Shown in pieces: positions 8,449 through 50,754 of a DNA stretch of 61,151 nucleotides; positions within the stretch are counted from its first letter, which is position 1; each line of letters opens with the position of its first letter. The translations under genes and the position numbers were made by a program. The notes under the pieces are model-generated. The model saw only the letters and a program-made list of their open reading frames with translations. It made no database searches and had not been told where the DNA came from. The stretch is from positions 1 to 61,151 of the IMG/VR virus record IMGVR_UViG_3300025168_000089; one strand, written 5' to 3'. The DNA is from a virus.

Positions 8449-8821
8449 AAAAGGAGGTAAAGCTCCAACACAAAAATATGCTAATGGGAAATGGGCGTAT
8501 GCTATATCTGATAGAAGTGGTTTACAATTTCCTTACAATGAAATGGTTAAAGAATGGACAGGGGCATTAGTTCATTCATCAGAGTGGGAAGAAAAACAAC
8601 CTCAACTTGATCCAATTGTATATACTGATGCGACAGCTTTAAAAAATCCTCGACCACCAGTAAATATGTTTACAGGTAATATTCCTGAACCCACAGGAGT
8701 ACCTAATCAAATTACGAATGTATTTCCTGGCACATTTGGTGCTACAGGACTTTCATTCCCAATGTCTACAGGAGAACAAATAAATGCCAGCATCGGAAAC
8801 GTCACAGTTATCATTAGTTGA
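8429..8821 (+). CDS. small structural protein with a degenerate zinc-ribbon-like N terminus
   Basis: The 130-residue protein contains AISDRSGLQFPYNEMVKEW then a Trp/Glu segment and KQPQLDP. Related phage proteins often carry CDRCG and a second Cys pair here; this one has Ser in place of Cys (SDRSG; SSEW), so metal binding is probably lost. The remainder is Pro-rich. It overlaps the genes on both sides (20 and 38 bases). Its role in the connector region is unknown. Confidence 0.6.
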   Translation: MASISTKKGGKAPTQKYANGKWAYAISDRSGLQFPYNEMVKEWTGALVHSSEWEEKQPQLDPIVYTDATALKNPRPPVNMFTGNIPEPTGVPNQITNVFPGTFGATGLSFPMSTGEQINASIGNVTVIIS

Positions 8822-9620
8822 TAAAGTTTATGATTTTAAAAAAGTAGTACTAATGGTAGGAACACCATGTTATGGTGGTTTATTACATGAAGCTTATATG
8901 CATTCTTTTTTAAGAACTCAAAAAGAAGCTGAAACTAAAGGATACAGACTTCATTTAAATTCAATGGGAAATGAAAGTTTAATAACTAGAGCTAGAAATA
9001 CCATAGTTTCTCAGTTTTTAAATCAAGAAAACTTAACTCATTTATTATTTATAGATGCTGATATAGCCTGGCAAGCTGAAACTGTTACTCGTATGTTATC
9101 AGTAGATGAAGAAGTAGTAGCAGCTATATATCCAAGGAAAGGTTTAGAGTGGCAACATGTAGAAAAGTATGTTAAATCTGCTCCAAATGATTTAAAAAAT
9201 TTAGAACAAAAACTATTAGGTTATAATTTAAATTTTAAAGATCCACACAATATACCAATGTATCAAGGTGGATTTGTAGAGGTATTAGATGCAGCTACTG
9301 GTTTTATGATGATAAAAAGAGAAGCAATTTTAAAGATGATAGAAGCGTATCCAGAATTAAAATATACATCAGATCAGATGTTAAATGGTGGTTTATATAC
9401 AAGTGATAATTGTTATGCTTTTTTTGATACTATGATTGATCCAGTAAGTAATAGATATTTAAGTGAAGATTATGCTTTTTGCCGTTTATGGCAAAAAATA
9501 GGGGGAAAAATATATGCAGATGTGGCGAGTTCATTAACTCATTACGGAACATATTCTTTTAAAGGAAATGTCTCGCATAAATTTGCAGAACAAGATAAGA
9601 TAGAAGATAATGGCAACTAA
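8784..9620 (+). CDS. GT-A type glycosyltransferase in the structural operon
   Basis: The 278-residue protein has a GT-A fold pattern: a first strand (KVVLMVGTPCYGG), RARNTIVSQFL, the metal-binding DxD as FIDADI (Asp91 and Asp93), and a later SEDYAFCRLWQKIGG, typical of family 2-like transferases where an acidic residue acts as base. It would move a sugar from a nucleotide sugar to an acceptor. Its place between connector genes suggests glycosylation of a virion protein, though DNA or host surface targets are possible. The UDP-sugar enzyme at 39297 could supply a donor. Confidence 0.72.
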   Translation: MPASETSQLSLVDKVYDFKKVVLMVGTPCYGGLLHEAYMHSFLRTQKEAETKGYRLHLNSMGNESLITRARNTIVSQFLNQENLTHLLFIDADIAWQAETVTRMLSVDEEVVAAIYPRKGLEWQHVEKYVKSAPNDLKNLEQKLLGYNLNFKDPHNIPMYQGGFVEVLDAATGFMMIKREAILKMIEAYPELKYTSDQMLNGGLYTSDNCYAFFDTMIDPVSNRYLSEDYAFCRLWQKIGGKIYADVASSLTHYGTYSFKGNVSHKFAEQDKIEDNGN

Positions 9621-38515: not shown

Positions 38516-39300
38516 AATATTTATTTTTTGACGTAGAAACAACTGGGTTATGGAAAAGAGATTTAGAAGCAACTGATCCTAAACAACCTAAAATAGTTCA
38601 AATTGCTGCTCAATTAACTGACAAAGATGAGAAAGTTTACGCACAATTAGCTTGTATAGTACAACCAGATAAATGGTCTATACCTAAAGAAGCTGAAGAT
38701 ATTCATAAAATAAGTGATAATATAGCTTTGCAATATGGTGTTCCTCTGATAAATGTATTAGGAATGTTTAATTCTCTAGCAGCACAAGCTGACGTATTAG
38801 TGGCTCACAATACATCATTTGATTTACAGATGGTATTAAGAGAATTTAATGCGATAGGAAAAAGTTTTAGGATTCCTAAAGAGCAACATTGTACGATGAT
38901 GACTGCTAAAGATATTTTAAAATTAGAAAGTAATTTTAATGACTATAAATTTCCTAAACTAGAAGAAACATATAAACATTTTTTAGGAGCAGGAGGATAT
39001 CATAATTGGCACGATGCTCTTACTGATATTATTATATGCCGAATAATCTACTTCCACATGAAAGCGAAAGGAATAAAAATGGAAAAACCACGTGCAATGC
39101 CTAAAGCATTAATTAAAAATTTGGACGAAAAAATATACAAAGAGTTTTTAAATCTTATAAAATTTATTAAAGAAGATACTTTAAATGATTGGGAAAAAGG
39201 TTTTCTTAAAGACCAAAAAGAAAGACATGAGAAATATAAAGAAAAAATACTTATGAGCGATAAACAAATGAATATATTAAGAAAGTTTAAAGATAAATGA
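38512..39300 (+). CDS. DnaQ-like 3'-5' exonuclease (DEDDh)
   Basis: The 262-residue protein has Exo I FFDVETTGLW (Asp7, Glu9), Exo II VAHNTSFDLQMVLREF and Exo III HNWHDALTDIIICRI, with His and Asp five residues apart as in the DEDDh class. It removes 3' nucleotides, giving proofreading or DNA processing. The polymerase at 46712 already contains its own exonuclease domain, so this may work with recombination or in degrading nucleic acid. It overlaps the epimerase gene by 4 bases. Confidence 0.84.
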   Translation: MKYLFFDVETTGLWKRDLEATDPKQPKIVQIAAQLTDKDEKVYAQLACIVQPDKWSIPKEAEDIHKISDNIALQYGVPLINVLGMFNSLAAQADVLVAHNTSFDLQMVLREFNAIGKSFRIPKEQHCTMMTAKDILKLESNFNDYKFPKLEETYKHFLGAGGYHNWHDALTDIIICRIIYFHMKAKGIKMEKPRAMPKALIKNLDEKIYKEFLNLIKFIKEDTLNDWEKGFLKDQKERHEKYKEKILMSDKQMNILRKFKDK

Positions 39301-40259
39301 GAGTATTAGTAACAGGTTGCGCTGGTTTTGTAGGATCACATCTTACAGAACATTTAGTTAATAGAGGAGATACTGTTTACGGTATAGATAATTTATTAAC
39401 AGGGCAAGAAAAAAATATAGGAAATTTGCATAGTTTTATAGAAGCAGATATTAGTAAAACTAATGATATGAAAGATATTATAAAACAAATTATAAATGAA
39501 GGACCTATTGATTTAATTTATAATTTAGCATGTCCTGCAAGTCCTGATCACTATATAAAACATTCTCTTAAAACTTTAGATACTTGTTATTTAGGAACTA
39601 AAAATATTTTAGATGCTGCGTTTTTAACAAATTCTATGGTCATACACACATCTACTTCAGAAGTATATGGAAACCCAGATCATAGCCCTCAAGAAGAAGA
39701 TTATTACGGAAGTGTAAATTCTTTTGGACCACGAGCATGTTATGATGAGGGTAAAAGAGTAGCAGAAGCACTTATCTATGAATATATTCGTTTATATAGA
39801 TTAGATATTAAAATAGCAAGATTATTTAATACTTATGGACCTCGTATGGCTGTTAATGATGGTAGAGTTATATCTAATTTTATTTGCGCTGCTTTAGAAA
39901 ATAAAGAATTATTATTATATGGCAATGGGCTTCAATCTCGTTCTTTTTGTTATGTATCAGATACAATACACGCTTTATTAGGGCTTGCAGAAACTACAAA
40001 ATTAAATAAACCAGTTAATATTGGCAACCCAGATGAAAAAACAATTTATAATATTGCTGAATTAATAATTGCAATGACTGATTCTAAATCAGGAATCATG
40101 ACAGTTGCACATAAAAAAGACGACCCTTTACAAAGATGTCCTAATATAGAAAGAATTAATATGTTATTAAATTGGAAACCAGAAATAACTTTAACAGAAG
40201 GACTAAAGAAAACCATAGAGTATTTTAGAAAATGTTTAATAAAGAAAACACCAACGTAA
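39297..40259 (+). CDS. UDP-glucuronate decarboxylase (UDP-xylose synthase)
   Basis: The 320-residue short-chain dehydrogenase-type enzyme binds NAD with VTGCAGFVGSHL (Gly7, Gly10, Gly13), has TSEVYG (near 120-125), ACYDEGKR with catalytic Tyr149 and Lys153, and NTYGPRMAVNDGRVISNF, which is specific for UDP-glucuronate decarboxylases rather than generic epimerases. It converts UDP-glucuronate to UDP-xylose. In this setting it could supply a pentose for DNA or virion glycosylation. The gene overlaps the helicase by 28 bases. Confidence 0.85.
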   Translation: MRVLVTGCAGFVGSHLTEHLVNRGDTVYGIDNLLTGQEKNIGNLHSFIEADISKTNDMKDIIKQIINEGPIDLIYNLACPASPDHYIKHSLKTLDTCYLGTKNILDAAFLTNSMVIHTSTSEVYGNPDHSPQEEDYYGSVNSFGPRACYDEGKRVAEALIYEYIRLYRLDIKIARLFNTYGPRMAVNDGRVISNFICAALENKELLLYGNGLQSRSFCYVSDTIHALLGLAETTKLNKPVNIGNPDEKTIYNIAELIIAMTDSKSGIMTVAHKKDDPLQRCPNIERINMLLNWKPEITLTEGLKKTIEYFRKCLIKKTPT

Positions 40260-41764
40260 TATTAGGTCCTCCTGGGACTGGTAAAACTACTTCATTACTT
40301 AATAAGCTTGAAGCAGAAATAGAGGCAGGAGTTAAACCTCGCACTATTGGATTTGTGAGTTTTACTCGCAGAGCCATTAAAGAATCACGAGAAAGAACTA
40401 TTTCTCGTTTTGATATTAATGAAGAAACAGATTTAGATTATTTTAGAACACTTCATAGTATTTGTTTTCGTTCTTTAGGATTAAATGGAAAACAAATATT
40501 TAAAGGAAGTCACGTTACTGAATTTAAAAAACTTTTAAAAATAGATATGTCAGGTGGAGTAGAAGAAGATGAAATAGTCACATCGGGAATAAAGATTGGC
40601 GATAAAATGTTATTTTGTGACCAATTAGCTAGAGCAATGATGAAACCTTTAAGAGATACTTGGAGAAGTTTAGATTGTGAATATTCATGGAAAGAACAAG
40701 AATTATTTTCTAATACATTTAGAAAGTTTAAAGAAAAAAGAGGACTATCTGATTTCACTGATATGCTTATAACTTTCTTAAAAGAAGGTGTAGCACCTCC
40801 ATTAAAAGTTTTATTTGTTGATGAGGCACAAGATTTAACGATACTTCAATGGAAAGTAGTGAGTAAATTAGTTGAGAATTGCGATAGATTATATATCGCA
40901 GGAGATGATGATCAAACTATTTATAAATGGGCGGGTGCTGATATTGATACATTTCTAAATCTTAAAGGTAATATAGAAGTGCTTCCTTATAGTTATAGAT
41001 TACCTTCTAAAGTTTATGATTTAGCAATCGAGATTAGCTCACGTATAAAAAACAGATTTGCAAAAGAATGGAAAAGCAGAAAAGAAGAAGGTACTGTTAA
41101 TTATGTATCTGCTATAGAATATATAGACATGAAAGAAGGACCATGGCTCATCCTCTCTCGATATAATTATCAACTTTATTCAATTCAAAAATTTTTAAAA
41201 ACTCAAGGATTTGTGTTTGAAAACAAGTACGGAGGGTTTAAAGCTAATAAGCATGTTCAAGGAATTAGAGCATGGAAAAAACTTATGAATAAAGAAAAAA
41301 TTGTATATGAAGAAATAAAAAAACTATATTCTTGTTTACGAACAGGAAGTGGTATAGAAAGAGGATTTAAGAATTTAAAAACTATTGACGGAGATATAAT
41401 TAATTATCATAAAGAAGAATTTGATTTAGAAAGTTTAAGAATGCACCATGGGCTAAAAGCTAAAGGTAAATGGCAAGAAGCATTAGAGATGATTCCAGAA
41501 GAAGATAAATATTATTATGAAGCTTTAGAAAAAACTGGAGATATAAATGAAGATAGTCCACGAATACGATTAAGTACGATACATGGAAGTAAAGGAGCAG
41601 AAGCTGATAACGTAGTATTACTCACTGATGTTTCTTATAAAACTTGGAAGAATTTAGTTAAAGATGACGATGATGAGCATCGTGTTTTTTATGTAGGAAT
41701 TACACGAGTAAAAAATAATTTATTTATTGTAAATCCTCAAACTGAATATAGTTATAGGATATAA
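40232..41764 (+). CDS. UvrD/Rep-like SF1 helicase
   Basis: The 510-residue protein has motif I ILGPPGTGKTTSLL, motif II LFVDEAQDL, motif III GDDDQTIYKWAGAD, motif IV LPYSYRLP, and motifs V-VI STIHGSKGAEADNVVLL and YVGITRVKNNLFIV. This is a full SF1A set. It is shorter than UvrD (about 720), like compact phage helicases such as T4 Dda, and probably unwinds DNA at the replication fork or in recombination. It begins inside the preceding gene. Confidence 0.86.
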   Translation: MFNKENTNVILGPPGTGKTTSLLNKLEAEIEAGVKPRTIGFVSFTRRAIKESRERTISRFDINEETDLDYFRTLHSICFRSLGLNGKQIFKGSHVTEFKKLLKIDMSGGVEEDEIVTSGIKIGDKMLFCDQLARAMMKPLRDTWRSLDCEYSWKEQELFSNTFRKFKEKRGLSDFTDMLITFLKEGVAPPLKVLFVDEAQDLTILQWKVVSKLVENCDRLYIAGDDDQTIYKWAGADIDTFLNLKGNIEVLPYSYRLPSKVYDLAIEISSRIKNRFAKEWKSRKEEGTVNYVSAIEYIDMKEGPWLILSRYNYQLYSIQKFLKTQGFVFENKYGGFKANKHVQGIRAWKKLMNKEKIVYEEIKKLYSCLRTGSGIERGFKNLKTIDGDIINYHKEEFDLESLRMHHGLKAKGKWQEALEMIPEEDKYYYEALEKTGDINEDSPRIRLSTIHGSKGAEADNVVLLTDVSYKTWKNLVKDDDDEHRVFYVGITRVKNNLFIVNPQTEYSYRI

Positions 41765-41765
41765 T

Positions 41766-42440
41766 ATGAGTAACGATAAAAGAATAGATTACTTGAATAG
41801 TTTTCAAAATAAAATAGATAGCGATATTTATAGCGAACCTAAATCTCAATTACACTATAGTGTAATAAAGCCTCAAGCACAAAACTTTTTAAATCAATTC
41901 GGAATTAAAGAAGATAAATCAGTTATAGATATAGGTTGTGGAGATGGTTATTTTTTATCTTTGTTAAAAGAAAATGGATTTAAAGATTTAGCTGGAGTTA
42001 CTAAAGGCAAAGAAGATATTACTAATTGTGTTGATAAAGGAATAAAAAAAATATATGATACTGATATGACATTTACTCATATTAAAGAACAATACGATGT
42101 TTTATGGTGCCGGCATTGTCTTGAGCATAGTCCATATCCTTATTTAACTTTGCATGAATTTAATCGTTTAGTTAAAATGAATGGCTATGCTTATATAGAA
42201 GTTCCCGAAGCTGAAGGATATGTTAAACATGAGAATAATGCAAATCATTACTCTATGTTAACGAAAAGAAATTGGGTATCTTTAATTTTACGTTGTGGAT
42301 TCGATATAAATAGAATACAAGATATTGATTTAAGTATTAGAAATAAAGATTTTCAAGATGGACACCCCTATCCCGAGCAATGGTGGGCTTTTTATTTAAC
42401 TAAAACAATTGATTTAAAATTTATGGAAGGAAAAATATGA
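41766..42440 (+). CDS. class I SAM-dependent methyltransferase
   Basis: The 224-residue protein has motif I VIDIGCGDGYFLSLL (binding S-adenosylmethionine), then an acidic end of the second strand (LAGVTKGKED) and CRHCLEHSPYPYLTLHEFNR as motif IV region, typical of Methyltransf_11/23 enzymes. Such proteins are often sugar, small-molecule or surface methyltransferases; no DNA-specific NPPY motif is present. It might finish a sugar modification from the neighbouring cassette, which is inference. Confidence 0.75.
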   Translation: MSNDKRIDYLNSFQNKIDSDIYSEPKSQLHYSVIKPQAQNFLNQFGIKEDKSVIDIGCGDGYFLSLLKENGFKDLAGVTKGKEDITNCVDKGIKKIYDTDMTFTHIKEQYDVLWCRHCLEHSPYPYLTLHEFNRLVKMNGYAYIEVPEAEGYVKHENNANHYSMLTKRNWVSLILRCGFDINRIQDIDLSIRNKDFQDGHPYPEQWWAFYLTKTIDLKFMEGKI

Positions 42441-43498
42441 AAGCAATAGGAAGTTATATATTCGCTGGAGGGTTTACTATTGGCGTTAAAAAACATTTTG
42501 ATATTGAGGCACATTTAGAAGGTGATGGAGCGTACGGAGCAGACACATTTTCTTTAAATTATCCAAATATACCTATATTTGAAGGACCAGATAATTGGCC
42601 TATAGAAAAATATAAAGATAAAATAGATTTTGTGTATGGTAATCCCCCTTGCGCTCCCTGGAGTACGTTAGGTTCAGGAAGTAAAGGAGCAGATGGTTGG
42701 AAAACTGATCCTCGTATTAGTTGTTGGAACGATGTATTTTCTTTACTTTATAAAATAAGGCCTAAAGTTTTAGCTATTGAATCAGTTCCCCGTGTTTTTT
42801 CAGAGACAGGAGGTAGACCAATGATAATGGATTTTACTAAAAAAGCTAATGAAGAAGGTTACGCCGTTACACATTTATTAGTAGATGGACAATATACGGG
42901 ACTTCCTCATTCAAGAAAACGATTTTTCTTTTTAGCACATAAAGGAAATTTTAATCCTCCTGCTCCTAACTGGAATCCTGCACCAAATGTAGGAGAAGTA
43001 TTAGATGAATTAAAAGCAGATGGAATTGAAGCAGGTCATACTGCAACTTTAAGTGAAAATGAAATGAAATTAACTAGAATGGCTAAACCTGGAGAATCAT
43101 TGAGAAATATATGGGAAAGTTTAAATCCCCCTGAAACTTGGAAAAGGTCACTTAAAGGACGTAAAGGAGTTATAGGTAGACCTCAATTTATGAAATGGAG
43201 ATTAACTCGAAAACAAATAATGGGAGTTATTGCAGGAAGTTTTTCTATTCACCCTGAAGAAGATAGACTTTTAGGAATACAAGAACTCTGCGCTTTTTGT
43301 GGATACCCAACAGATTATAAATTTTCAGGAGCAAAATCAGGGTGGCCTAGTTTATTAGCTAGAGGAGTAATGCCTCCAGTAGGTGAATGGTTAGCTAGAA
43401 ATGTAAAAGCAATGATAGAATCTAATTCGGGATTTGAAGTTAATCATAAAGTTATAGATTACCGTAAACCAACAACAGGAGATTTATTTAATGCTTAA
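42437..43498 (+). CDS. C5-cytosine DNA methyltransferase
   Basis: The 353-residue enzyme shows motif I FAGGFTIGV (9-17), motif IV GNPPCAPWSTLG with catalytic Cys72, motif VI as ESV (115-117) in place of the usual ENV, motif VIII QYTGLPHSRKRFFF (152-165) and a C-terminal GVMPPVGEWLARN like motifs IX-X. It transfers a methyl group to C5 of cytosine. It may protect phage DNA from restriction or prepare cytosine for more changes. The target recognition region (about 190-290) is compact. It overlaps both neighbours. Confidence 0.82.
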   Translation: MKAIGSYIFAGGFTIGVKKHFDIEAHLEGDGAYGADTFSLNYPNIPIFEGPDNWPIEKYKDKIDFVYGNPPCAPWSTLGSGSKGADGWKTDPRISCWNDVFSLLYKIRPKVLAIESVPRVFSETGGRPMIMDFTKKANEEGYAVTHLLVDGQYTGLPHSRKRFFFLAHKGNFNPPAPNWNPAPNVGEVLDELKADGIEAGHTATLSENEMKLTRMAKPGESLRNIWESLNPPETWKRSLKGRKGVIGRPQFMKWRLTRKQIMGVIAGSFSIHPEEDRLLGIQELCAFCGYPTDYKFSGAKSGWPSLLARGVMPPVGEWLARNVKAMIESNSGFEVNHKVIDYRKPTTGDLFNA

Positions 43499-43871
43499 AG
43501 ATATAGAAGAATTTCATAAAAAATTTGGATTTGAAAAAAGAGTGGGTATCAAAAATAATAAAAATTTGGTAGACTTTCGGATTAAATTCTTAGAAGAAGA
43601 ATTAAGAGAATTTAAAGAAGCAATTAAAGAAGAAAATGATGCAAAAGCATTAGATGCTTTAGTTGATTTAACATATGTAGCTATAGGAACAGCTTATCTT
43701 TTTGATTATCCGTTTTGGGCTGCTTGGACAGAAGTACAGAAAGCTAATATGGCAAAAGTAAGAAAAGAAAGTGAACGTTCAAAATTTGATGTAATAAAAC
43801 CTAAGGGTTGGAAAGCACCTAATATTGAACAAATAATAAATATATTTAAAAATTGGAAGGCATGGTCATGA
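43491..43871 (+). CDS. MazG-like nucleotide pyrophosphohydrolase
   Basis: The 126-residue helical protein has FLEEELREFKEAIKEEND then ALDALVDLTYVAIGTAYL, the EExxE...ExxD pattern of all-alpha NTP pyrophosphohydrolases (MazG, dUTPase/dCTPase relatives). These split dNTPs to dNMP plus pyrophosphate. Placed among dCMP enzymes, it is a candidate dCTP pyrophosphatase like T4 gp56, which keeps normal cytosine out of phage DNA. Substrate is inferred. Confidence 0.76.
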   Translation: MLKDIEEFHKKFGFEKRVGIKNNKNLVDFRIKFLEEELREFKEAIKEENDAKALDALVDLTYVAIGTAYLFDYPFWAAWTEVQKANMAKVRKESERSKFDVIKPKGWKAPNIEQIINIFKNWKAWS

Positions 43872-44911
43872 AAGTATTAGTAACAGGATTTACTGCTAAA
43901 GGTATAGGCAGTGGTAAAAATGTATTAGAGATTGCAACAGCAGCTAATTGTTTACCAAGAGCATTAAGAGAATGCGGAATAGAAGTGGATCATAAGTCAG
44001 TTACTCCGGGAGATGATATATCAGAATATGATAAAGTAGTAGTATTTGCTTTTGCTCCTAATTCTTTACCGTCATCTTATTTATATGGAGGTCTTTATAC
44101 TTTATTGAAAAGACCAGACGCATATATAGCATTAGATGATTGGCAAACTAAAGATATAAAACAAGGATGTGGTACTTTTGCACGTGACGGACATTGGAGA
44201 TTATGGAAAAGAGTAAGTAAAGCAGGTAACTCTGTGGGTAAAAAATTCTTTCATGAAGCACAAGCTTATAAAAAAGAAATGGAAGATTTAATTACTCAAT
44301 TAGCTTTTGAAAAATGGCCATATAAAGTACTAGCACCAGTTTATAAAGGTGGAGATGTATCTCAATTAGGGATAGATTCCAAAGAAATAATACCATGGGA
44401 TCCAACTCCTGTTACTGATAGTTATAAAGCAGGAAGTAAATATAATCAATCTTTATTTTCAAGTATAAATAGTATTCCTGAAGTTAAAGAAAAAGAATGG
44501 ATCATGGCTTCTTTAATTCAAAAACAAAGTTGGTTTAAACGACAAAAATTCGAATGGCCTGTAACTTGTTATGGTAATCCAAATCTTAATCAACGAAGAT
44601 TAACTGAGCCCGATTTATATAATGAATATTTAAGAGTGAGGGGAATATTAATACCTCCTCATTATCATACGATAAAAGGAAGTGGTTGGTGGAGAGTTCG
44701 TTACGGAATGATAGCAGACGCAGGTTGCATAGCTTATGGAGAAACTGAAGAAACTAAATTATTTGGAGATTCTTATCAAGTATCTTTATCTGATATAGAA
44801 AAAATGAATGATAGTGAATTAAATGATTTAGCTGAAATTCAAAAAAAAGATTTTAATTCTACAGTATGGAATAAAAATAGATTAAATACTTTTATAAGCG
44901 ATTATTTTTAA
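43868..44911 (+). CDS. possible GT-B-type glycosyltransferase of the modification cassette
   Basis: The 347-residue protein has a Rossmann-like N terminus (KVLVTGFTAKGIGSGKNVLE; DKVVVFAFAPNSLPSSYLYG), a linker and a second half ending HYHTIKGSGWWRVRYGMIAD then GCIAYGETEE, which resembles the donor-binding C-terminal domain of GT-B glycosyltransferases. ATG 43868 is preferred because GGAAGG lies at 43855-43860 and it forms ATGA with the MazG stop; TTG 43853 is less likely. It may glycosylate hydroxymethylcytosine, but I do not recognise the family for certain. Confidence 0.45.
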   Translation: MKVLVTGFTAKGIGSGKNVLEIATAANCLPRALRECGIEVDHKSVTPGDDISEYDKVVVFAFAPNSLPSSYLYGGLYTLLKRPDAYIALDDWQTKDIKQGCGTFARDGHWRLWKRVSKAGNSVGKKFFHEAQAYKKEMEDLITQLAFEKWPYKVLAPVYKGGDVSQLGIDSKEIIPWDPTPVTDSYKAGSKYNQSLFSSINSIPEVKEKEWIMASLIQKQSWFKRQKFEWPVTCYGNPNLNQRRLTEPDLYNEYLRVRGILIPPHYHTIKGSGWWRVRYGMIADAGCIAYGETEETKLFGDSYQVSLSDIEKMNDSELNDLAEIQKKDFNSTVWNKNRLNTFISDYF

Positions 44912-45516
44912 TGAGAGATACATCAAATACAGTGAAAGGAATTATTATAGTAGAAGGTGCAGACTGTACGGGTAAAACTACTTTAACAGATTTATTTCGT
45001 AAAAAATTTAAAGCGAGATATATGCACTTACGAATTCATAAAAAAATGGAAGTATGGCATACTGCTACTGTTCGTAGAGCAATTAGATTAGCTAAAAATG
45101 AATTAGTTGTAATCGATAGACATTGGCCATCAGAAGAAGTTTATTCTTATGAAAGAGCAGATGGACCTGAATATAATCCTTTAAAACTTTATAAAAAATT
45201 AAAAAAAGCAAATACATTATATGTATGGTGTGCTCCTGAAGATAGTGCTAAAGTTATACGAACACATAGAAAAAAGAAAGAAGAACGGCATGAAGAATAT
45301 AGTGATATTACTCGAATTGTTGATAGATACAAACGTTCATGGTATGGTTTAAACTATGAGCATAATAACTTTCTTAAATCTCTAGGGGAATTAAGATGGC
45401 GAAAAAACTTCATACGATATGACGTTTTTAAAGAAGGTCATAAGATTGATAATAAATCTTATGATATAATTAATCGACTACGATATTTGAGAGGAGAAGC
45501 AGTATGGACGGTTTAG
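44911..45516 (+). CDS. deoxynucleoside monophosphate kinase, thymidylate kinase-like
   Basis: The 201-residue P-loop kinase has IIIVEGADCTGKTTLTDLF (Walker A 16-24) and VVIDRHWPSEEVYSYERADG with the DR(H/Y) motif of thymidylate kinases (Asp69, Arg70), and a basic lid (RTHRKKKEERHEEYSD). It phosphorylates a dNMP. Next to the thymidylate-synthase-like gene it would be suited to raise a modified dCMP to the diphosphate, as T4 gp1 does. It shares one base with the previous gene and overlaps the next by 13. Confidence 0.78.
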   Translation: MRDTSNTVKGIIIVEGADCTGKTTLTDLFRKKFKARYMHLRIHKKMEVWHTATVRRAIRLAKNELVVIDRHWPSEEVYSYERADGPEYNPLKLYKKLKKANTLYVWCAPEDSAKVIRTHRKKKEERHEEYSDITRIVDRYKRSWYGLNYEHNNFLKSLGELRWRKNFIRYDVFKEGHKIDNKSYDIINRLRYLRGEAVWTV

Positions 45517-46304
45517 CAGCAGATAATGTTTGGAATGATGCTATTTTAGATATTCAAGGAGGATTAAAATCATCGCCTCGTGGTATGAAAACACGAGAAA
45601 AAATAAATCATACTACTATGTGTGATATGCGATATCCTATCGTTACTAATAAAAAAAGATTATTAGGCTATAATTTTATGGTACAAGAAGCTATTTGGAT
45701 ATTAAGGGGTGATAATAGATTGAGCACGATAAAACATTATTCTAAAATAATTAGTAAATTTAGTGATGATAAATATTTCTTTAGAGGAGCTTATGGTCCT
45801 AAAGTTATAGACCAACTTCAGTATGTGTGTCACGCACTAAAAGAAGATAGAAACACGAGACAAGCAGTTATAAATATTTGGAGAGAAAGTCCATATGCGA
45901 CTAACGATATACCTTGTACTATATCATTTCAATTTTTAATTCGTGAAGATAAATTACATATTATAGCTAACATGAGGTCTAATGATTTATGGTTAGGCTG
46001 GCCTTACGATAATTTTAATTTTTCTATGCTCGGCGCATACGTTGCTTTATTATTAAAAGACATATATAATATAGAAGTGGGACTAGGAATAACGACTATT
46101 AATGCAGGGTCACGTCACTTATATGAACCTAACTTTGAGTCAGCAGATATGTGTACACATTCTAATTATGAAGATTATGTTAACTATAAACCATTGAATT
46201 TAAAGGATTATACTAGTGCAGAAAATTTCTTAGACCATTTAGAATTTGTATCTTTACCTAACTCTAAAGGATTTGCACATGAATTTTTTAATGAGACCAA
46301 ATAA
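45504..46304 (+). CDS. thymidylate-synthase-family enzyme, probable dCMP hydroxymethylase
   Basis: The 266-residue ThyA-fold enzyme keeps Glu62 (QEAIWILRGD), catalytic Cys138 (DIPCTISFQF), the phosphate motif MRSNDLWLGWPYDN (Arg158, Ser159, Asp161) and SRHLYEPN (His205, Tyr207). The residue matching E. coli TS Asn177, which selects dUMP, is Asp169 here. In T4 dCMP hydroxymethylase the same place is Asp, and Asn-to-Asp changes turn TS toward dCMP. I therefore predict hydroxymethylation (or methylation) of dCMP with methylene-tetrahydrofolate. Confidence 0.8.
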   Translation: MDGLAADNVWNDAILDIQGGLKSSPRGMKTREKINHTTMCDMRYPIVTNKKRLLGYNFMVQEAIWILRGDNRLSTIKHYSKIISKFSDDKYFFRGAYGPKVIDQLQYVCHALKEDRNTRQAVINIWRESPYATNDIPCTISFQFLIREDKLHIIANMRSNDLWLGWPYDNFNFSMLGAYVALLLKDIYNIEVGLGITTINAGSRHLYEPNFESADMCTHSNYEDYVNYKPLNLKDYTSAENFLDHLEFVSLPNSKGFAHEFFNETK

Positions 46305-46740
46305 GAACGAAACTTTTTTAGACATTGCCCAGACAGTATCGGAACAAGCAACATGCATCCGGCGTAATGTTGGGTGTGTGTTAGTTAATTCAAAAAATCA
46401 TATTCTTGCGACAGGGTATAACGGAGTTCCTGCAGGAGCAGTGCACTGTTTAGATTTACCTTGCGCTGGAGCAGAACTTCCATCAGGAGAAGGATTAGAT
46501 TCTTGCGAAGCGATTCACGCAGAGCAAAATGCATTACTTCAATGCAAAGATATTTATGATATTGAAAAATGTTATTGCACAGTAAGTCCGTGTATGACGT
46601 GTGTTAAATTATTATTAAACACTTCTTGTAGTATTTTAATTTTTCCTACTTTATATACTGATACAGAACCATTAGAACTTTGGAAAAAAGCAGAAAGAGA
46701 GTATATTATTTATGAACGACTTATTCAAACCCGTCAGTAA
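46279..46740 (+). CDS. deoxycytidylate (dCMP) deaminase
   Basis: The 153-residue zinc enzyme has CEAIHAEQNALLQC (His and catalytic Glu) and VSPCMTCVKLLLNTSC (two Cys ligands), and the family-specific RRNVGCVLV and TGYNGVPAG. It converts dCMP to dUMP for dTMP synthesis and shapes the dCMP/dTMP balance. ATG 46279 is chosen, with AAAGGA 8 bases upstream; the frame also opens at TTG 46246. It overlaps the preceding gene by 26 bases and the polymerase gene by 29. Confidence 0.9.
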   Translation: MNFLMRPNKNETFLDIAQTVSEQATCIRRNVGCVLVNSKNHILATGYNGVPAGAVHCLDLPCAGAELPSGEGLDSCEAIHAEQNALLQCKDIYDIEKCYCTVSPCMTCVKLLLNTSCSILIFPTLYTDTEPLELWKKAEREYIIYERLIQTRQ

Positions 46741-48583
46741 TTGGAGACCTCCCGAGGTTTTAATTAATTACAGCGACTCAAAATGTTTAGCTATTGATAC
46801 TGAAACGTATGACCCTAATTTAAAAAAGAATGGACCTGGAGGATTTCGTAACGATGGATTTGTCGTTGGTATTTCTCTATGCGATGAAGCAAGAAGAAAA
46901 TGTTATTTACCTATAGCACATCAAGAGGGCGGTAATCTTCCTAAAGAGTTAATCATCTCTTATTTAAAAAACGCACTGGAGACGACTAAAACGAAGATTT
47001 TCGCTAATGCATTATATGATTTAGAGTGGCTATCTACTTTAGGAATAAATACTCAAGGAAAAGTATATGATATTCAAGTAGCAGAAACTTTACTTAATGA
47101 GAATCGTAGGTCGTTTTCTTTAGATAATATATCAGCGGATTATTTAGGTGAAAAGAAAGATGAATCACTTTTAGAAGAAGCTGTGAGAACTCATTTTTCT
47201 GGAAAAGCTAATGTAAAAGGAAGTTTATGGAAACTTCATTCATCATATGTTGGTCCATATGCTGAGAAAGATGCTGAGTTGACGATGCAAGTTTTTAAAA
47301 AACAATATCCTTTATTACGGCAAGAAGATTTATTACCTGTACTTGATATGGAACAACGTATGATTCCTCTTTTGTTATCGATGAGAAAGAAAGGTGTTCG
47401 AGTTGACATTGAGAAAGCATCGAAGCTAAAGGATACGATTTACTTAAAACAAAATGAAACGCAAAAACAGTTAAACCATATTATAGGTGGAGAAGTAAAT
47501 GTATGGGCTAATGAAAGTATAGCGAGAGCATATGATTCACAGAATATTAAATACACATACACGGCCAAAGGATCACCATCATTTACTCAAGACTGGTTAA
47601 ACACTGCAGGAGATAATATTAGTCCTTTAATTTTACGAGTGCGAAAACTCTATAAATTAAAAAGCACATTCATTGAAAACATGATTATTAATAAATCAGT
47701 TAATGGAAGATTACATTGTCAATTACATTCGACAGGAACAGTAACAGGACGATTTAGTTCATCACATCCTAATCTTCAACAAGTACCTGCGCACGATCCC
47801 GAGTTAGCGCCATTAGTAAGAGGTTTATTTATTCCTGAAGAAGAACACGATTGGGTATGTGTAGATTATGCACAGCAAGAGCCACGATTACTCGTTCACT
47901 TCGCAAGTAAAACAAATAATCGTTCAGCAAAATTGGCACAGAATTTATACAAAAACGATACACAAACTGACTTTCATACGATGGTTGCAGAGATGGCTGG
48001 AATCAAGAGAAAACAAGCAAAAACTATTAATCTTGGCTTAACTTATGGCATGGGAAAAAAGAAATTAGCAGCGGAATTAGGACTAAGTTTTGATGACGCA
48101 GAATCTCTCTTTGAGAAGTATCATCGCAATGTTCCTTTCGTTCAAGCATTGAACAATCAAGCTATCGCATTCGCTTCGACTAAAGGTTATATTAAAACTT
48201 TATTAGGAAGGCGCAGGCATTTTAATTTATATGAACCAACTGGTTGGGATAACTTTGGTAAGCCTGCGTATCCGATTGAGAAAGCGAAAGAAGTGTATAA
48301 AGGAATGATATTGAAAAGAGCACAAACACATAAAGCTTTAAACTGCTTGATCCAAGGATCAGCCGCTGATGTTACAAAAGCAGCTATGTTAAAAGTATGG
48401 GATAGTAAGATTATGGATATAGGATTAACGATACATGATGAGTTAGACTTCTCAGTACCTCGCACGAAAGAGGGTGAAGAAAAACTTAATGAAGTAGTTA
48501 ATATTATGAAGAACGCAGTTACATTAAATGTTCCATTAGAGGTAGACGTTGAGAGAGGAGCAAGTTGGGGAGAGATTAAGTGA
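46712..48583 (+). CDS. polA: family A DNA polymerase with 3'-5' exonuclease
   Basis: The 623-residue replicative polymerase has an N-terminal exonuclease (CLAIDTETYDP, Asp29 and Glu31; further SxxxADxE-like motif AEKDAELTMQVF), motif A CVDYAQQEPRLL (Asp385), motif B RKQAKTINLGLTYGMG (Lys437, Tyr445) and motif C IHDELDF (His575, Asp576). The residue matching E. coli Phe762 is Leu441, the state connected in marine viral surveys with lower speed, higher fidelity and temperate or slower life styles. It lacks the 5' nuclease domain of E. coli Pol I. Confidence 0.93.
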   Translation: MNDLFKPVSNWRPPEVLINYSDSKCLAIDTETYDPNLKKNGPGGFRNDGFVVGISLCDEARRKCYLPIAHQEGGNLPKELIISYLKNALETTKTKIFANALYDLEWLSTLGINTQGKVYDIQVAETLLNENRRSFSLDNISADYLGEKKDESLLEEAVRTHFSGKANVKGSLWKLHSSYVGPYAEKDAELTMQVFKKQYPLLRQEDLLPVLDMEQRMIPLLLSMRKKGVRVDIEKASKLKDTIYLKQNETQKQLNHIIGGEVNVWANESIARAYDSQNIKYTYTAKGSPSFTQDWLNTAGDNISPLILRVRKLYKLKSTFIENMIINKSVNGRLHCQLHSTGTVTGRFSSSHPNLQQVPAHDPELAPLVRGLFIPEEEHDWVCVDYAQQEPRLLVHFASKTNNRSAKLAQNLYKNDTQTDFHTMVAEMAGIKRKQAKTINLGLTYGMGKKKLAAELGLSFDDAESLFEKYHRNVPFVQALNNQAIAFASTKGYIKTLLGRRRHFNLYEPTGWDNFGKPAYPIEKAKEVYKGMILKRAQTHKALNCLIQGSAADVTKAAMLKVWDSKIMDIGLTIHDELDFSVPRTKEGEEKLNEVVNIMKNAVTLNVPLEVDVERGASWGEIK

Positions 48584-49811: not shown

Positions 49812-50075
49812 ATGGTTCGTATCACGTGGTTAGATGCCCGTGATACGGAAACTGGTTGGCTCGATATAAAAGATGTTATCGATGCGCCATTAGCGTTATG
49901 TCAAGAAGTCGGCTGGATGGTTACCAGTAATGAAGATAAAGTAGTTATCATGCGTTCTTATAGTAAAGATAAAGATGAAGTATCGGGCGGTGGAGCTATT
50001 GCTATACCTAAAGGTTGGGTTAAAAAAATAGAATATTTAGAGGTATCATATGGAGAAAGAAGCGATAATAGGTAA
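49812..50075 (+). CDS. small conserved-type phage protein
   Basis: The 87-residue protein (MVRITWLDARDTETGWLDIK) is beta-rich, with CQEVGWMVTSNEDKVVIMRS and IAIPKGWVKKIEYL. The Trp-Asp-rich start and IPKGWV end are familiar from small phage proteins of unknown role. It overlaps the oxygenase gene by 26 bases. No strong ribosome binding site precedes ATG 49812. Confidence 0.6.
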   Translation: MVRITWLDARDTETGWLDIKDVIDAPLALCQEVGWMVTSNEDKVVIMRSYSKDKDEVSGGGAIAIPKGWVKKIEYLEVSYGERSDNR

Positions 50076-50754
50076 TGTCTTTGGCAAAACGATTTATAAA
50101 TCGTCAATCAAGGGTCATCAATATTTAAATAGTAAAGTCAAACCTCTCATTGAGAAGTTTGTAAAAGAAAAACCAGGAACTGTAGCGGCGACTACAGATG
50201 TTAAAGGTAATCTTAAAGCAACGATATTAGAAAATGCTATTGATGATTTACATTTACAAGATGACTATAAAGAATTGTTCGATGCATTAGCTTTTGATAT
50301 AAAAGGATTTATGGCGGCGAAGTCTTATGACGATAGTAAATTTGATATAAATATTACGAAAGCATGGGCTACGTTTACATCGAAAGGTCAAAATATCCCA
50401 TCACATAAACATACGGCATCACATTATAGTTGTGTTTATTATGTGCATAATGAAGGTATGGGAGATATTAAATTTGAGCAAGAACTTTATTCACACGATG
50501 GATTTTTTATTCCACCAACAGATGCTTATATTAAAGAATGGAATCAATTTAATTTTGCGAGTTATAAATTTGAAGTAAAGTCAGGAGATTTTATTATATT
50601 TCCTAGTGGCTTACTTCATCAAACTGAAACGAATACGAAAGACACTCCACGCATAAGTATTTCGGCGGATATTCTTTTGACTATGAGAGAGGGGGTTAGC
50701 ACAGAACATTGTATTCCAAGTCCAAAAAGTTGGAAAACAATATATACTTCATAA
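50050..50754 (+). CDS. 2-oxoglutarate/Fe(II)-dependent oxygenase
   Basis: The 234-residue protein matches the 2OG-Fe(II) oxygenase class common in marine phages: TKAWATFTSKGQNIPSHKHT with His119/His121 as metal-ligand region, SHYSCVYYVHNEG, then SGDFIIFPSGLLHQTETN with His190, and PRISISADI with Arg201 binding 2-oxoglutarate. It hydroxylates a protein, nucleic acid or small molecule. The first ligand motif differs from the plain HxD of TET/JBP enzymes, so DNA oxidation is possible but unsupported. Confidence 0.78.
   Translation: MEKEAIIGNVFGKTIYKSSIKGHQYLNSKVKPLIEKFVKEKPGTVAATTDVKGNLKATILENAIDDLHLQDDYKELFDALAFDIKGFMAAKSYDDSKFDINITKAWATFTSKGQNIPSHKHTASHYSCVYYVHNEGMGDIKFEQELYSHDGFFIPPTDAYIKEWNQFNFASYKFEVKSGDFIIFPSGLLHQTETNTKDTPRISISADILLTMREGVSTEHCIPSPKSWKTIYTS

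What the first reader, a model, noticed from the sequence alone, without database searches (positions are those of the whole stretch)
39297..46740. Candidate T4-like cytosine hypermodification cassette in a P22-like phage
Within 7.4 kb lie a UDP-xylose synthase, a SAM methyltransferase, a C5-cytosine methyltransferase, a MazG-like pyrophosphohydrolase, a possible glycosyltransferase, a dNMP kinase, a ThyA-family enzyme with the dCMP-type residue and a dCMP deaminase. T4 uses dCTPase (gp56), dCMP hydroxymethylase (gp42), dNMP kinase (gp1), dCMP deaminase and glucosyltransferases to replace cytosine with glucosylated hydroxymethylcytosine. The same set of roles seems assembled here from different families, with a pentose donor enzyme. 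The genes are seen; the pathway is inferred.
Basis: partly seen in the sequence, partly recalled or inferred. Interest (0 to 1): 0.86.

Follow-up and report, generated by a model that had tools for sequence, protein, structure and literature searches.

The report
Phage kit for sugar-capped cytosine DNA
An uncultivated phage carries one compact block of overlapping genes that most likely replaces the cytosine in its DNA with hydroxymethylcytosine and then caps it with a five-carbon sugar, a relative of phage T4's DNA disguise that uses a different sugar supply and an extra, unexplained DNA-methylase-like partner.

Summary
In detail: all eight named genes are present at 39,297-46,740, in one overlapping co-directional run with a UvrD-type helicase and PolA. 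The 'possible glycosyltransferase' is now well supported: a confident model (pLDDT 91.7) has T4 DNA beta-glucosyltransferase as its best match in the PDB. The ThyA-family enzyme carries the T4 gp42 active-site letters (C146/T147/D169/D177) and lies outside the RB69 5-hydroxy-dCMP type. The sugar gene is a UDP-xylose synthase.

In 114 IMG/VR contigs encoding relatives of the glycosyltransferase, a dCMP-type hydroxymethylase lies nearby in 101, and 97 of 97 fully readable copies carry the same four residues. Nucleotide-sugar genes change with glycosyltransferase clade: UDP-xylose synthase (this clade), UDP-glucose dehydrogenase, or UDP-galactopyranose mutase.

New here: a divergent cytosine-C5-methyltransferase homologue is an almost constant partner and is fused to the glycosyltransferase in two contigs. 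T4's scheme does not explain it.

Most likely: dCMP to hm-dCMP, incorporation by polymerase, then pentosylation on DNA by UDP-xylose or a derivative. Enzyme activities, the sugar and the modified base are inferred, not measured. Pentosylated cytosine phages are already known (RB69, Thanatos), so this is a new variant of a known kind.

The parts
39297..40259 (+). UDP-xylose synthase (UDP-glucuronate decarboxylase), donor-sugar gene
   Evidence: PDB phmmer 2.4e-87 to human UXS1, next unrelated enzyme 3.8e-33; YDEGK and SEVYG motifs invariant in relatives
40232..41764 (+). UvrD/Rep-type helicase inside the block (replication, not modification)
   Evidence: PF00580 9.3e-30; conserved position
41766..42440 (+). 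Class I SAM methyltransferase, role unknown; found only in UXS-carrying relatives and missing from some of them
   Evidence: PF13489 1.4e-17; distribution
42437..43498 (+). Divergent cytosine-C5-methyltransferase homologue; Pro-Pro-Cys kept, ENV to ESV and GNxV to ARxV
   Evidence: PF00145 5.4e-26; motifs; fused to the glycosyltransferase in L088 and L089
43491..43871 (+). MazG-like NTP pyrophosphohydrolase, probable dCTPase
   Evidence: PF01503 3.3e-10, phrog_671 1e-26; weak match to DR2231
43868..44911 (+). GT-B DNA glycosyltransferase, T4 beta-glucosyltransferase-like fold
   Evidence: AlphaFold2 pLDDT 91.7, pTM 0.89; Foldseek PDB rank 1 is 1qkj T4 BGT, 6.2e-6
44911..45516 (+). dNMP (TMP-kinase-like) kinase, probably for hm-dCMP
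   Evidence: TIGR00041 7.2e-9, PF02223 1.3e-5, phrog_761 2.5e-13, P-loop
45504..46304 (+). ThyA-family dCMP hydroxymethylase (C146, T147, D169, D177 in E. coli numbering)
   Evidence: profile's best PDB match is CMP 5-hydroxymethylase MilA, 9.1e-27, against 1.7e-14 for the best thymidylate synthase
46279..46740 (+). dCMP deaminase
   Evidence: PF00383 3.7e-18, phrog_174 1.1e-36; start ATG 46279 after AAAGGA
46712..48583 (+). Family A DNA polymerase, overlapping the deaminase; would insert the modified dCTP
   Evidence: identified by reading the ORF, not by a family search; same position in relatives

Best explanation
The block is a cytosine hypermodification operon. The MazG-like enzyme breaks dCTP down to dCMP. 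The ThyA-family enzyme hydroxymethylates dCMP with methylene-tetrahydrofolate. The dNMP kinase, then host nucleoside-diphosphate kinase, raise hm-dCMP to hm-dCTP, and PolA puts it into phage DNA. The deaminase sends surplus dCMP towards dTMP. The UDP-xylose synthase turns host UDP-glucuronate into UDP-xylose, and the BGT-like glycosyltransferase moves that pentose, or a derivative of it, onto the hydroxymethyl groups in DNA to protect it from nucleases. Shown: the genes, their active-site residues, the predicted glycosyltransferase fold, gene-set conservation, and donor-gene changes between glycosyltransferase clades. Inferred: every catalytic activity, the identity of the sugar, and the modified base.
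For: D177 with D169 and T147, as in T4 gp42, in 97 of 97 fully readable TS-family neighbours of this glycosyltransferase family. D177 sets dCMP preference and marks modified contigs (PMC8670742). Profile's best PDB match is MilA CMP 5-hydroxymethylase. Glycosyltransferase model's best PDB match is T4 BGT; D91/D92, at the strand end where BGT has its catalytic D100 by my reading, are invariant in 52 sequences. UXS is unambiguous and occurs in every relative of this clade whose contig reaches that far. Related glycosyltransferases sit with close relatives of T4 gp42 (to 1e-90) and UDP-galactopyranose mutase, or with UDP-glucose dehydrogenase and NAD synthase. Nearly no cellular homologues: 3 loci found in a scan of 84,980 genomes. 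Overlapping genes in one run.
Against: No biochemical or mass-spectrometric data; no cultivated phage with the full set was found. No UDP-glucose dehydrogenase in the window. A C5-methyltransferase homologue is hard to fit if every cytosine carries hydroxymethyl. 52 of 114 glycosyltransferase contigs show no recognised nucleotide-sugar gene nearby, so that family may also use a host donor such as UDP-glucose. Kinase and MazG assignments are weak by sequence. BGT similarity is structural only: no sequence-profile match, TM about 0.57-0.60.
Confidence: 0.62

Rival explanations
1. Same hmC pathway, but the sugar put on DNA does not come from UDP-xylose as such: UDP-xylose is epimerised to UDP-arabinose, or the glycosyltransferase uses host UDP-glucose and the UXS serves something else.
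For: RB69 and NP carry arabinose (PMC6024577, PMC13390438). About half of relatives show no nucleotide-sugar gene nearby.
Against: No recognised epimerase, RB69 arabinose-cluster homologue or mutase in the window. UXS is tied to exactly one glycosyltransferase clade.
Confidence: 0.2
2. 5-hydroxycytosine route as in RB69: the ThyA homologue makes 5-hydroxy-dCMP and the sugar is attached directly to the ring.
For: RB69-type enzymes are also ThyA homologues, and in Morganella phage Rgz1 a relative of this glycosyltransferase sits beside an RB69-type enzyme.
Against: RB69-type enzymes form their own clade with Asn at position 169; the window and 97 of 97 related enzymes have Asp169, as T4 gp42 does.
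Confidence: 0.08
3. DNA-level route: the C5-methyltransferase homologue makes 5mC at sites, an oxygenase hydroxylates it, and the glycosyltransferase caps it (TET-type systems); the ThyA enzyme only manages pools.
For: C5-methyltransferase-glycosyltransferase fusions; a 2OG-Fe(II) oxygenase lies at 50050-50754.
Against: The oxygenase is TIGR02466/PF13759, not TET/JBP, and is not kept in all relatives. The dCMP-type ThyA enzyme is near-universal.
Confidence: 0.06
4. Not a DNA-modification set: nucleotide-pool genes beside a UXS and glycosyltransferase that decorate surface sugars or virion proteins.
For: UXS genes of some phages lie in surface-polysaccharide clusters (Aphanizomenon phage).
Against: BGT-like fold; hydroxymethylase neighbours in 101 of 114 contigs; almost no cellular homologues.
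Confidence: 0.04

Closest known systems
Phage T4 glucosyl-hmC system (gp42, gp56, gp1, dCMP deaminase, beta-GT)
   Same: Same order of chemical steps; ThyA enzyme with the gp42 active-site letters; glycosyltransferase with BGT-like fold
   Different: Own UDP-xylose synthase instead of host UDP-glucose only; TMP-kinase-like dNMP kinase; MazG-like dCTPase candidate; added C5-methyltransferase homologue; smaller phage with PolA; single operon
RB69 / NP arabinosyl-cytosine (5-ara-dC) system (PMC6024577, PMC13390438)
   Same: ThyA homologue plus phage-encoded pentose-donor genes and a DNA glycosyltransferase
   Different: RB69 enzyme is a 5-hydroxy-dCMP synthase type (Asn169) and its donor genes are an arabinose-5-phosphate-type cluster, not UXS; RB69 p003 shows no profile similarity to this glycosyltransferase
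Shewanella phage Thanatos pentose-cytosine (PMC12838424)
   Same: Pentose on cytosine; hydroxymethylase-like enzyme, dCTPase, dCMP deaminase; UDP-xylose as a candidate donor
   Different: Uses a UDP-xylose pyrophosphorylase rather than a UDP-glucuronate decarboxylase; sugar reported as a deoxypentose linked without a hydroxymethyl
Maribacter phages Colly/Molly cluster
   Same: UDP-glucose dehydrogenase, nucleotide-sugar epimerase, beta-glucosyltransferase and ThyA-family gene side by side
   Different: ThyA-family enzyme has Asn177 (dUMP type), so a uracil/thymine modification is more likely

Membership tests
T4-type glycosylated-hmC system | ThyA-family dCMP hydroxymethylase with Cys146, Asp169, Asp177 | tested here: met
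T4-type glycosylated-hmC system | DNA glycosyltransferase of BGT/AGT fold | tested here: met
   best PDB structural match T4 BGT, 6.2e-6, TM 0.57 (1nzd 0.60); no sequence-level match
T4-type glycosylated-hmC system | dCTP pyrophosphohydrolase | tested here: inconclusive
   MazG-like fold family met; substrate not testable
T4-type glycosylated-hmC system | dNMP kinase accepting hm-dCMP | tested here: inconclusive
   weak TMP-kinase similarity, P-loop present
T4-type glycosylated-hmC system | glycosylated hmC in virion DNA | not testable with these tools
   needs nucleoside mass spectrometry
UDP-xylose synthase (UXS) | closest to UDP-glucuronate decarboxylases rather than other SDRs, with Tyr-x3-Lys and SEVYG | tested here: met
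RB69-type 5-hydroxycytosine arabinosylation | 5-hodCMP-synthase-type ThyA homologue (clade with Asn169) | tested here: not met
RB69-type 5-hydroxycytosine arabinosylation | arabinose-5-phosphate-type donor cluster | tested here: not met
   no homologue of RB69 p051-p053 or p055 in the window
Canonical DNA cytosine-C5 methyltransferase | motif IV Pro-Cys nucleophile | tested here: met
   PPC invariant in the window's family
Canonical DNA cytosine-C5 methyltransferase | motif VI ENV and motif X GN(S/A)V | tested here: not met
   ESV and AR(G/S)V instead
TET/C5-MTase/TAGT DNA-level hypermodification | TET/JBP dioxygenase | tested here: inconclusive
   the one 2OG oxygenase examined is PF13759/TIGR02466; not every small ORF of the window was scanned against Pfam

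The most novel reading that the evidence does not exclude
The C5-methyltransferase homologue is a working part of the modification machine: it acts on hydroxymethylcytosine in DNA through its Cys adduct (adding, exchanging or removing a group at chosen sites), or guides the fused glycosyltransferase to sites. Laboratory C5-methyltransferases are known to couple thiols to hmC (PMC7176277), but no natural enzyme doing such chemistry is known to me. Together with a xylosyl-hmC base it would be a new kind of DNA base edit.
Probability: 0.15. Interest if true: 0.88.

Novelty: new variant of a known kind. Interest (0 to 1): 0.64.

Why it matters
It extends T4-style cytosine replacement to a group of uncultivated phages, links one family of BGT-fold glycosyltransferases to several sugar-supply routes, and so gives a ready panel (xylose-, glucuronate- and furanose-type partners) for finding new DNA bases and new labelling enzymes. 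It also turns a vague question, what a cytosine-C5-methyltransferase homologue does in a phage that hydroxymethylates its cytosine, into one that a single enzyme assay can test.

Tried and rejected
Megablast of the region against 50,697 phage records: no match. Pfam, NCBIfam and a PDB sequence-profile search for the glycosyltransferase: nothing. Direct profile comparison of the glycosyltransferase with RB69 p003, RB69 p050 and T4 BGT: no significant match, so the BGT link rests on structure. The first structure model (15 sequences, pLDDT 74.8) gave mostly generic GT-B matches; the second, with 52 sequences, was used. RB69-type 5-hydroxycytosine chemistry rejected on clade and Asn169. The Maribacter Colly/Molly cluster looked like the same set but has Asn177. 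The SDR genes in some relatives (L057, L079, L084, L244) are not UXS by score. The 2OG oxygenase is not TET. The preprint on glycosylated 5-hydroxycytosine biosynthesis is not held. Relatives' counts are not independent events: many contigs are close kin, and clades, not contigs, are the real units. One call used a wrong ticket and gave nothing.

Full report
What is there. Gaps between neighbours are -28, +1, -4, -8, -7, -1, -13, -59 and -29 bases, so this looks like one transcription unit. The deaminase probably starts at ATG 46,279 and the glycosyltransferase at ATG 43,868.

The sugar gene. The first enzyme is a UDP-xylose synthase by a wide margin: 2.4e-87 to human UDP-glucuronate decarboxylase, 3.8e-33 to the next unrelated enzyme. 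No UDP-glucose dehydrogenase, UDP-galactopyranose mutase or RB69-type arabinose gene was found in the window, so UDP-glucuronate would come from the host.

The ThyA-family enzyme. Aligned with E. coli ThyA it has C146, T147, D169 and D177. D177 is the known switch from dUMP to dCMP, and positions 177 and 147 are the two that best mark modified contigs in the MetaGPA study (PMC8670742). Its profile matches the CMP 5-hydroxymethylase MilA (9.1e-27) better than any thymidylate synthase (1.7e-14). In RB69, whose relatives make 5-hydroxy-dCMP (PMC13390438), and in five other enzymes of that clade, position 169 is Asn. The window's enzyme lies outside that clade and has the T4 letters. I infer hydroxymethylation; the Asn169 marker is my own observation and has not been tested by experiment.

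The glycosyltransferase. Sequence libraries say nothing beyond phrog_14998, unknown function. With 52 diverse relatives the predicted model is confident (pLDDT 91.7, pTM 0.89), and the two best matches in the whole PDB are T4 DNA beta-glucosyltransferase (6.2e-6 and 1.2e-5; TM 0.57, and 0.60 for entry 1nzd). D91, D92, R277 and R279 are invariant. By position in the fold, D91/D92 may correspond to the catalytic D100 of T4 BGT; that is my reading, not a computed structural alignment. The family is nearly absent from cellular genomes (3 loci found in a scan of 84,980 species).

Conservation and partners. In the closest 14 or so contigs the order UXS, helicase, (SAM methyltransferase), C5-methyltransferase homologue, MazG, glycosyltransferase, kinase, ThyA family, deaminase, PolA is kept, to about 50% identity; the deaminase is not detected in some. 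Among 114 IMG/VR contigs with this glycosyltransferase family, a ThyA-family gene lies within reach in 101; most of the 13 without one are short or end near the gene. In 97 of 97 fully readable copies the residues are C/T/D/D. For scale, 2,169 of 50,697 phage records (4.3%) hold any ThyA-family match. The contigs are related, so these are not independent counts.

Donor genes follow the glycosyltransferase tree. The UXS clade is one branch (99/96), sister to a clade (100/99) in which UXS is missing and, in many of the contigs that reach past PolA, a UDP-glucose/GDP-mannose dehydrogenase with an NAD synthase follows PolA. More distant clades pair the glycosyltransferase with T4 gp42 relatives (1e-66 to 1e-90) and UDP-galactopyranose mutase, or with a UDP-glucuronate-4-epimerase-like SDR and a short dehydrogenase (those two names are from my reading of the sequences). 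This is the pattern expected if the acceptor stays the same (hmC) and the sugar changes.

The unexpected partner. The C5-methyltransferase homologue keeps the Pro-Pro-Cys motif but has ESV for ENV and AR(G/S)V for GN(A/S)V. Of 59 loci with this family, 49 also hold the glycosyltransferase and/or the ThyA enzyme; most of the other ten are cut off shortly downstream of it. No isolate phage has a relative at 1e-15. In L088 (884 codons) and L089 (808 codons, cut at the contig end) it is fused in frame to the glycosyltransferase. In L223-L236 a C5-methyltransferase homologue directly follows the glycosyltransferase in several contigs. Fusion and repeated adjacency point to a shared pathway. In the laboratory, C5-methyltransferases can put hydroxymethyl on cytosine from formaldehyde and couple thiols to hmC (PMC7176277), so an action on hmC is chemically possible. 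An ordinary methylase acting on leftover plain cytosine is not excluded and is the more conservative reading.

Comparison with what is known. It works like T4's system in its steps. It resembles RB69 and Thanatos in bringing a pentose (PMC6024577, PMC13390438, PMC12838424), but it differs from RB69 in the ThyA enzyme type and donor genes, and from Thanatos in making UDP-xylose by decarboxylation. Searches of the held papers found none that holds 'UDP-glucuronate decarboxylase', 'phage' and 'DNA modification' together, nor one joining UDP-galactopyranose mutase, phage and hydroxymethylcytosine; the library lacks many subscription papers and preprints, including the most relevant one, so this is weak evidence of novelty.

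Verdict. New variant of a known kind; interest 0.64, raised by the fusion and the donor-gene switching, held down by the absence of any measurement.

Noticed in passing
L088:6357-9008 and L089:2-2425: In-frame fusion of a C5-methyltransferase homologue with the BGT-like glycosyltransferase, with an extra small repeated domain (GSGxxIRxLLL...) in the linker or tail.
   Followed up: partly
L057:12719-14739 (and kin L056-L094): Phage-encoded UDP-glucose/GDP-mannose dehydrogenase followed by an NAD synthase, directly after PolA, in the sister clade that lacks UXS.
   Followed up: partly
L042 (Maribacter phage Colly_1), 7708-12467: UDP-glucose dehydrogenase, epimerase, beta-glucosyltransferase and Asn177 ThyA-family gene in a row: possible glycosylated hydroxymethyluracil.
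   Followed up: partly
window 8784-9620: A second, unrelated glycosyltransferase-like protein (phrog_1574/phrog_34859, weak Anp1) among the structural genes.
   Followed up: no
window 50050-50754: 2OG-Fe(II) oxygenase of the TIGR02466 family, not TET; present in some close relatives only.
   Followed up: no
RB69-type ThyA homologues (L040, L033, L248-L251): All six examined have Asn at E. coli position 169 where T4 gp42 and thymidylate synthases have Asp: a possible sequence marker for 5-hydroxy-dCMP synthases.
   Followed up: partly
L034 (Actinomycetia phage DSL-LC01), 11992-15137: Two paralogues of the glycosyltransferase flank a UDP-galactopyranose mutase: perhaps stepwise addition of two furanose sugars.
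   Followed up: no
window 41766-42440: SAM methyltransferase found only with UXS-carrying relatives: perhaps an O-methyl cap on the pentose.
   Followed up: no
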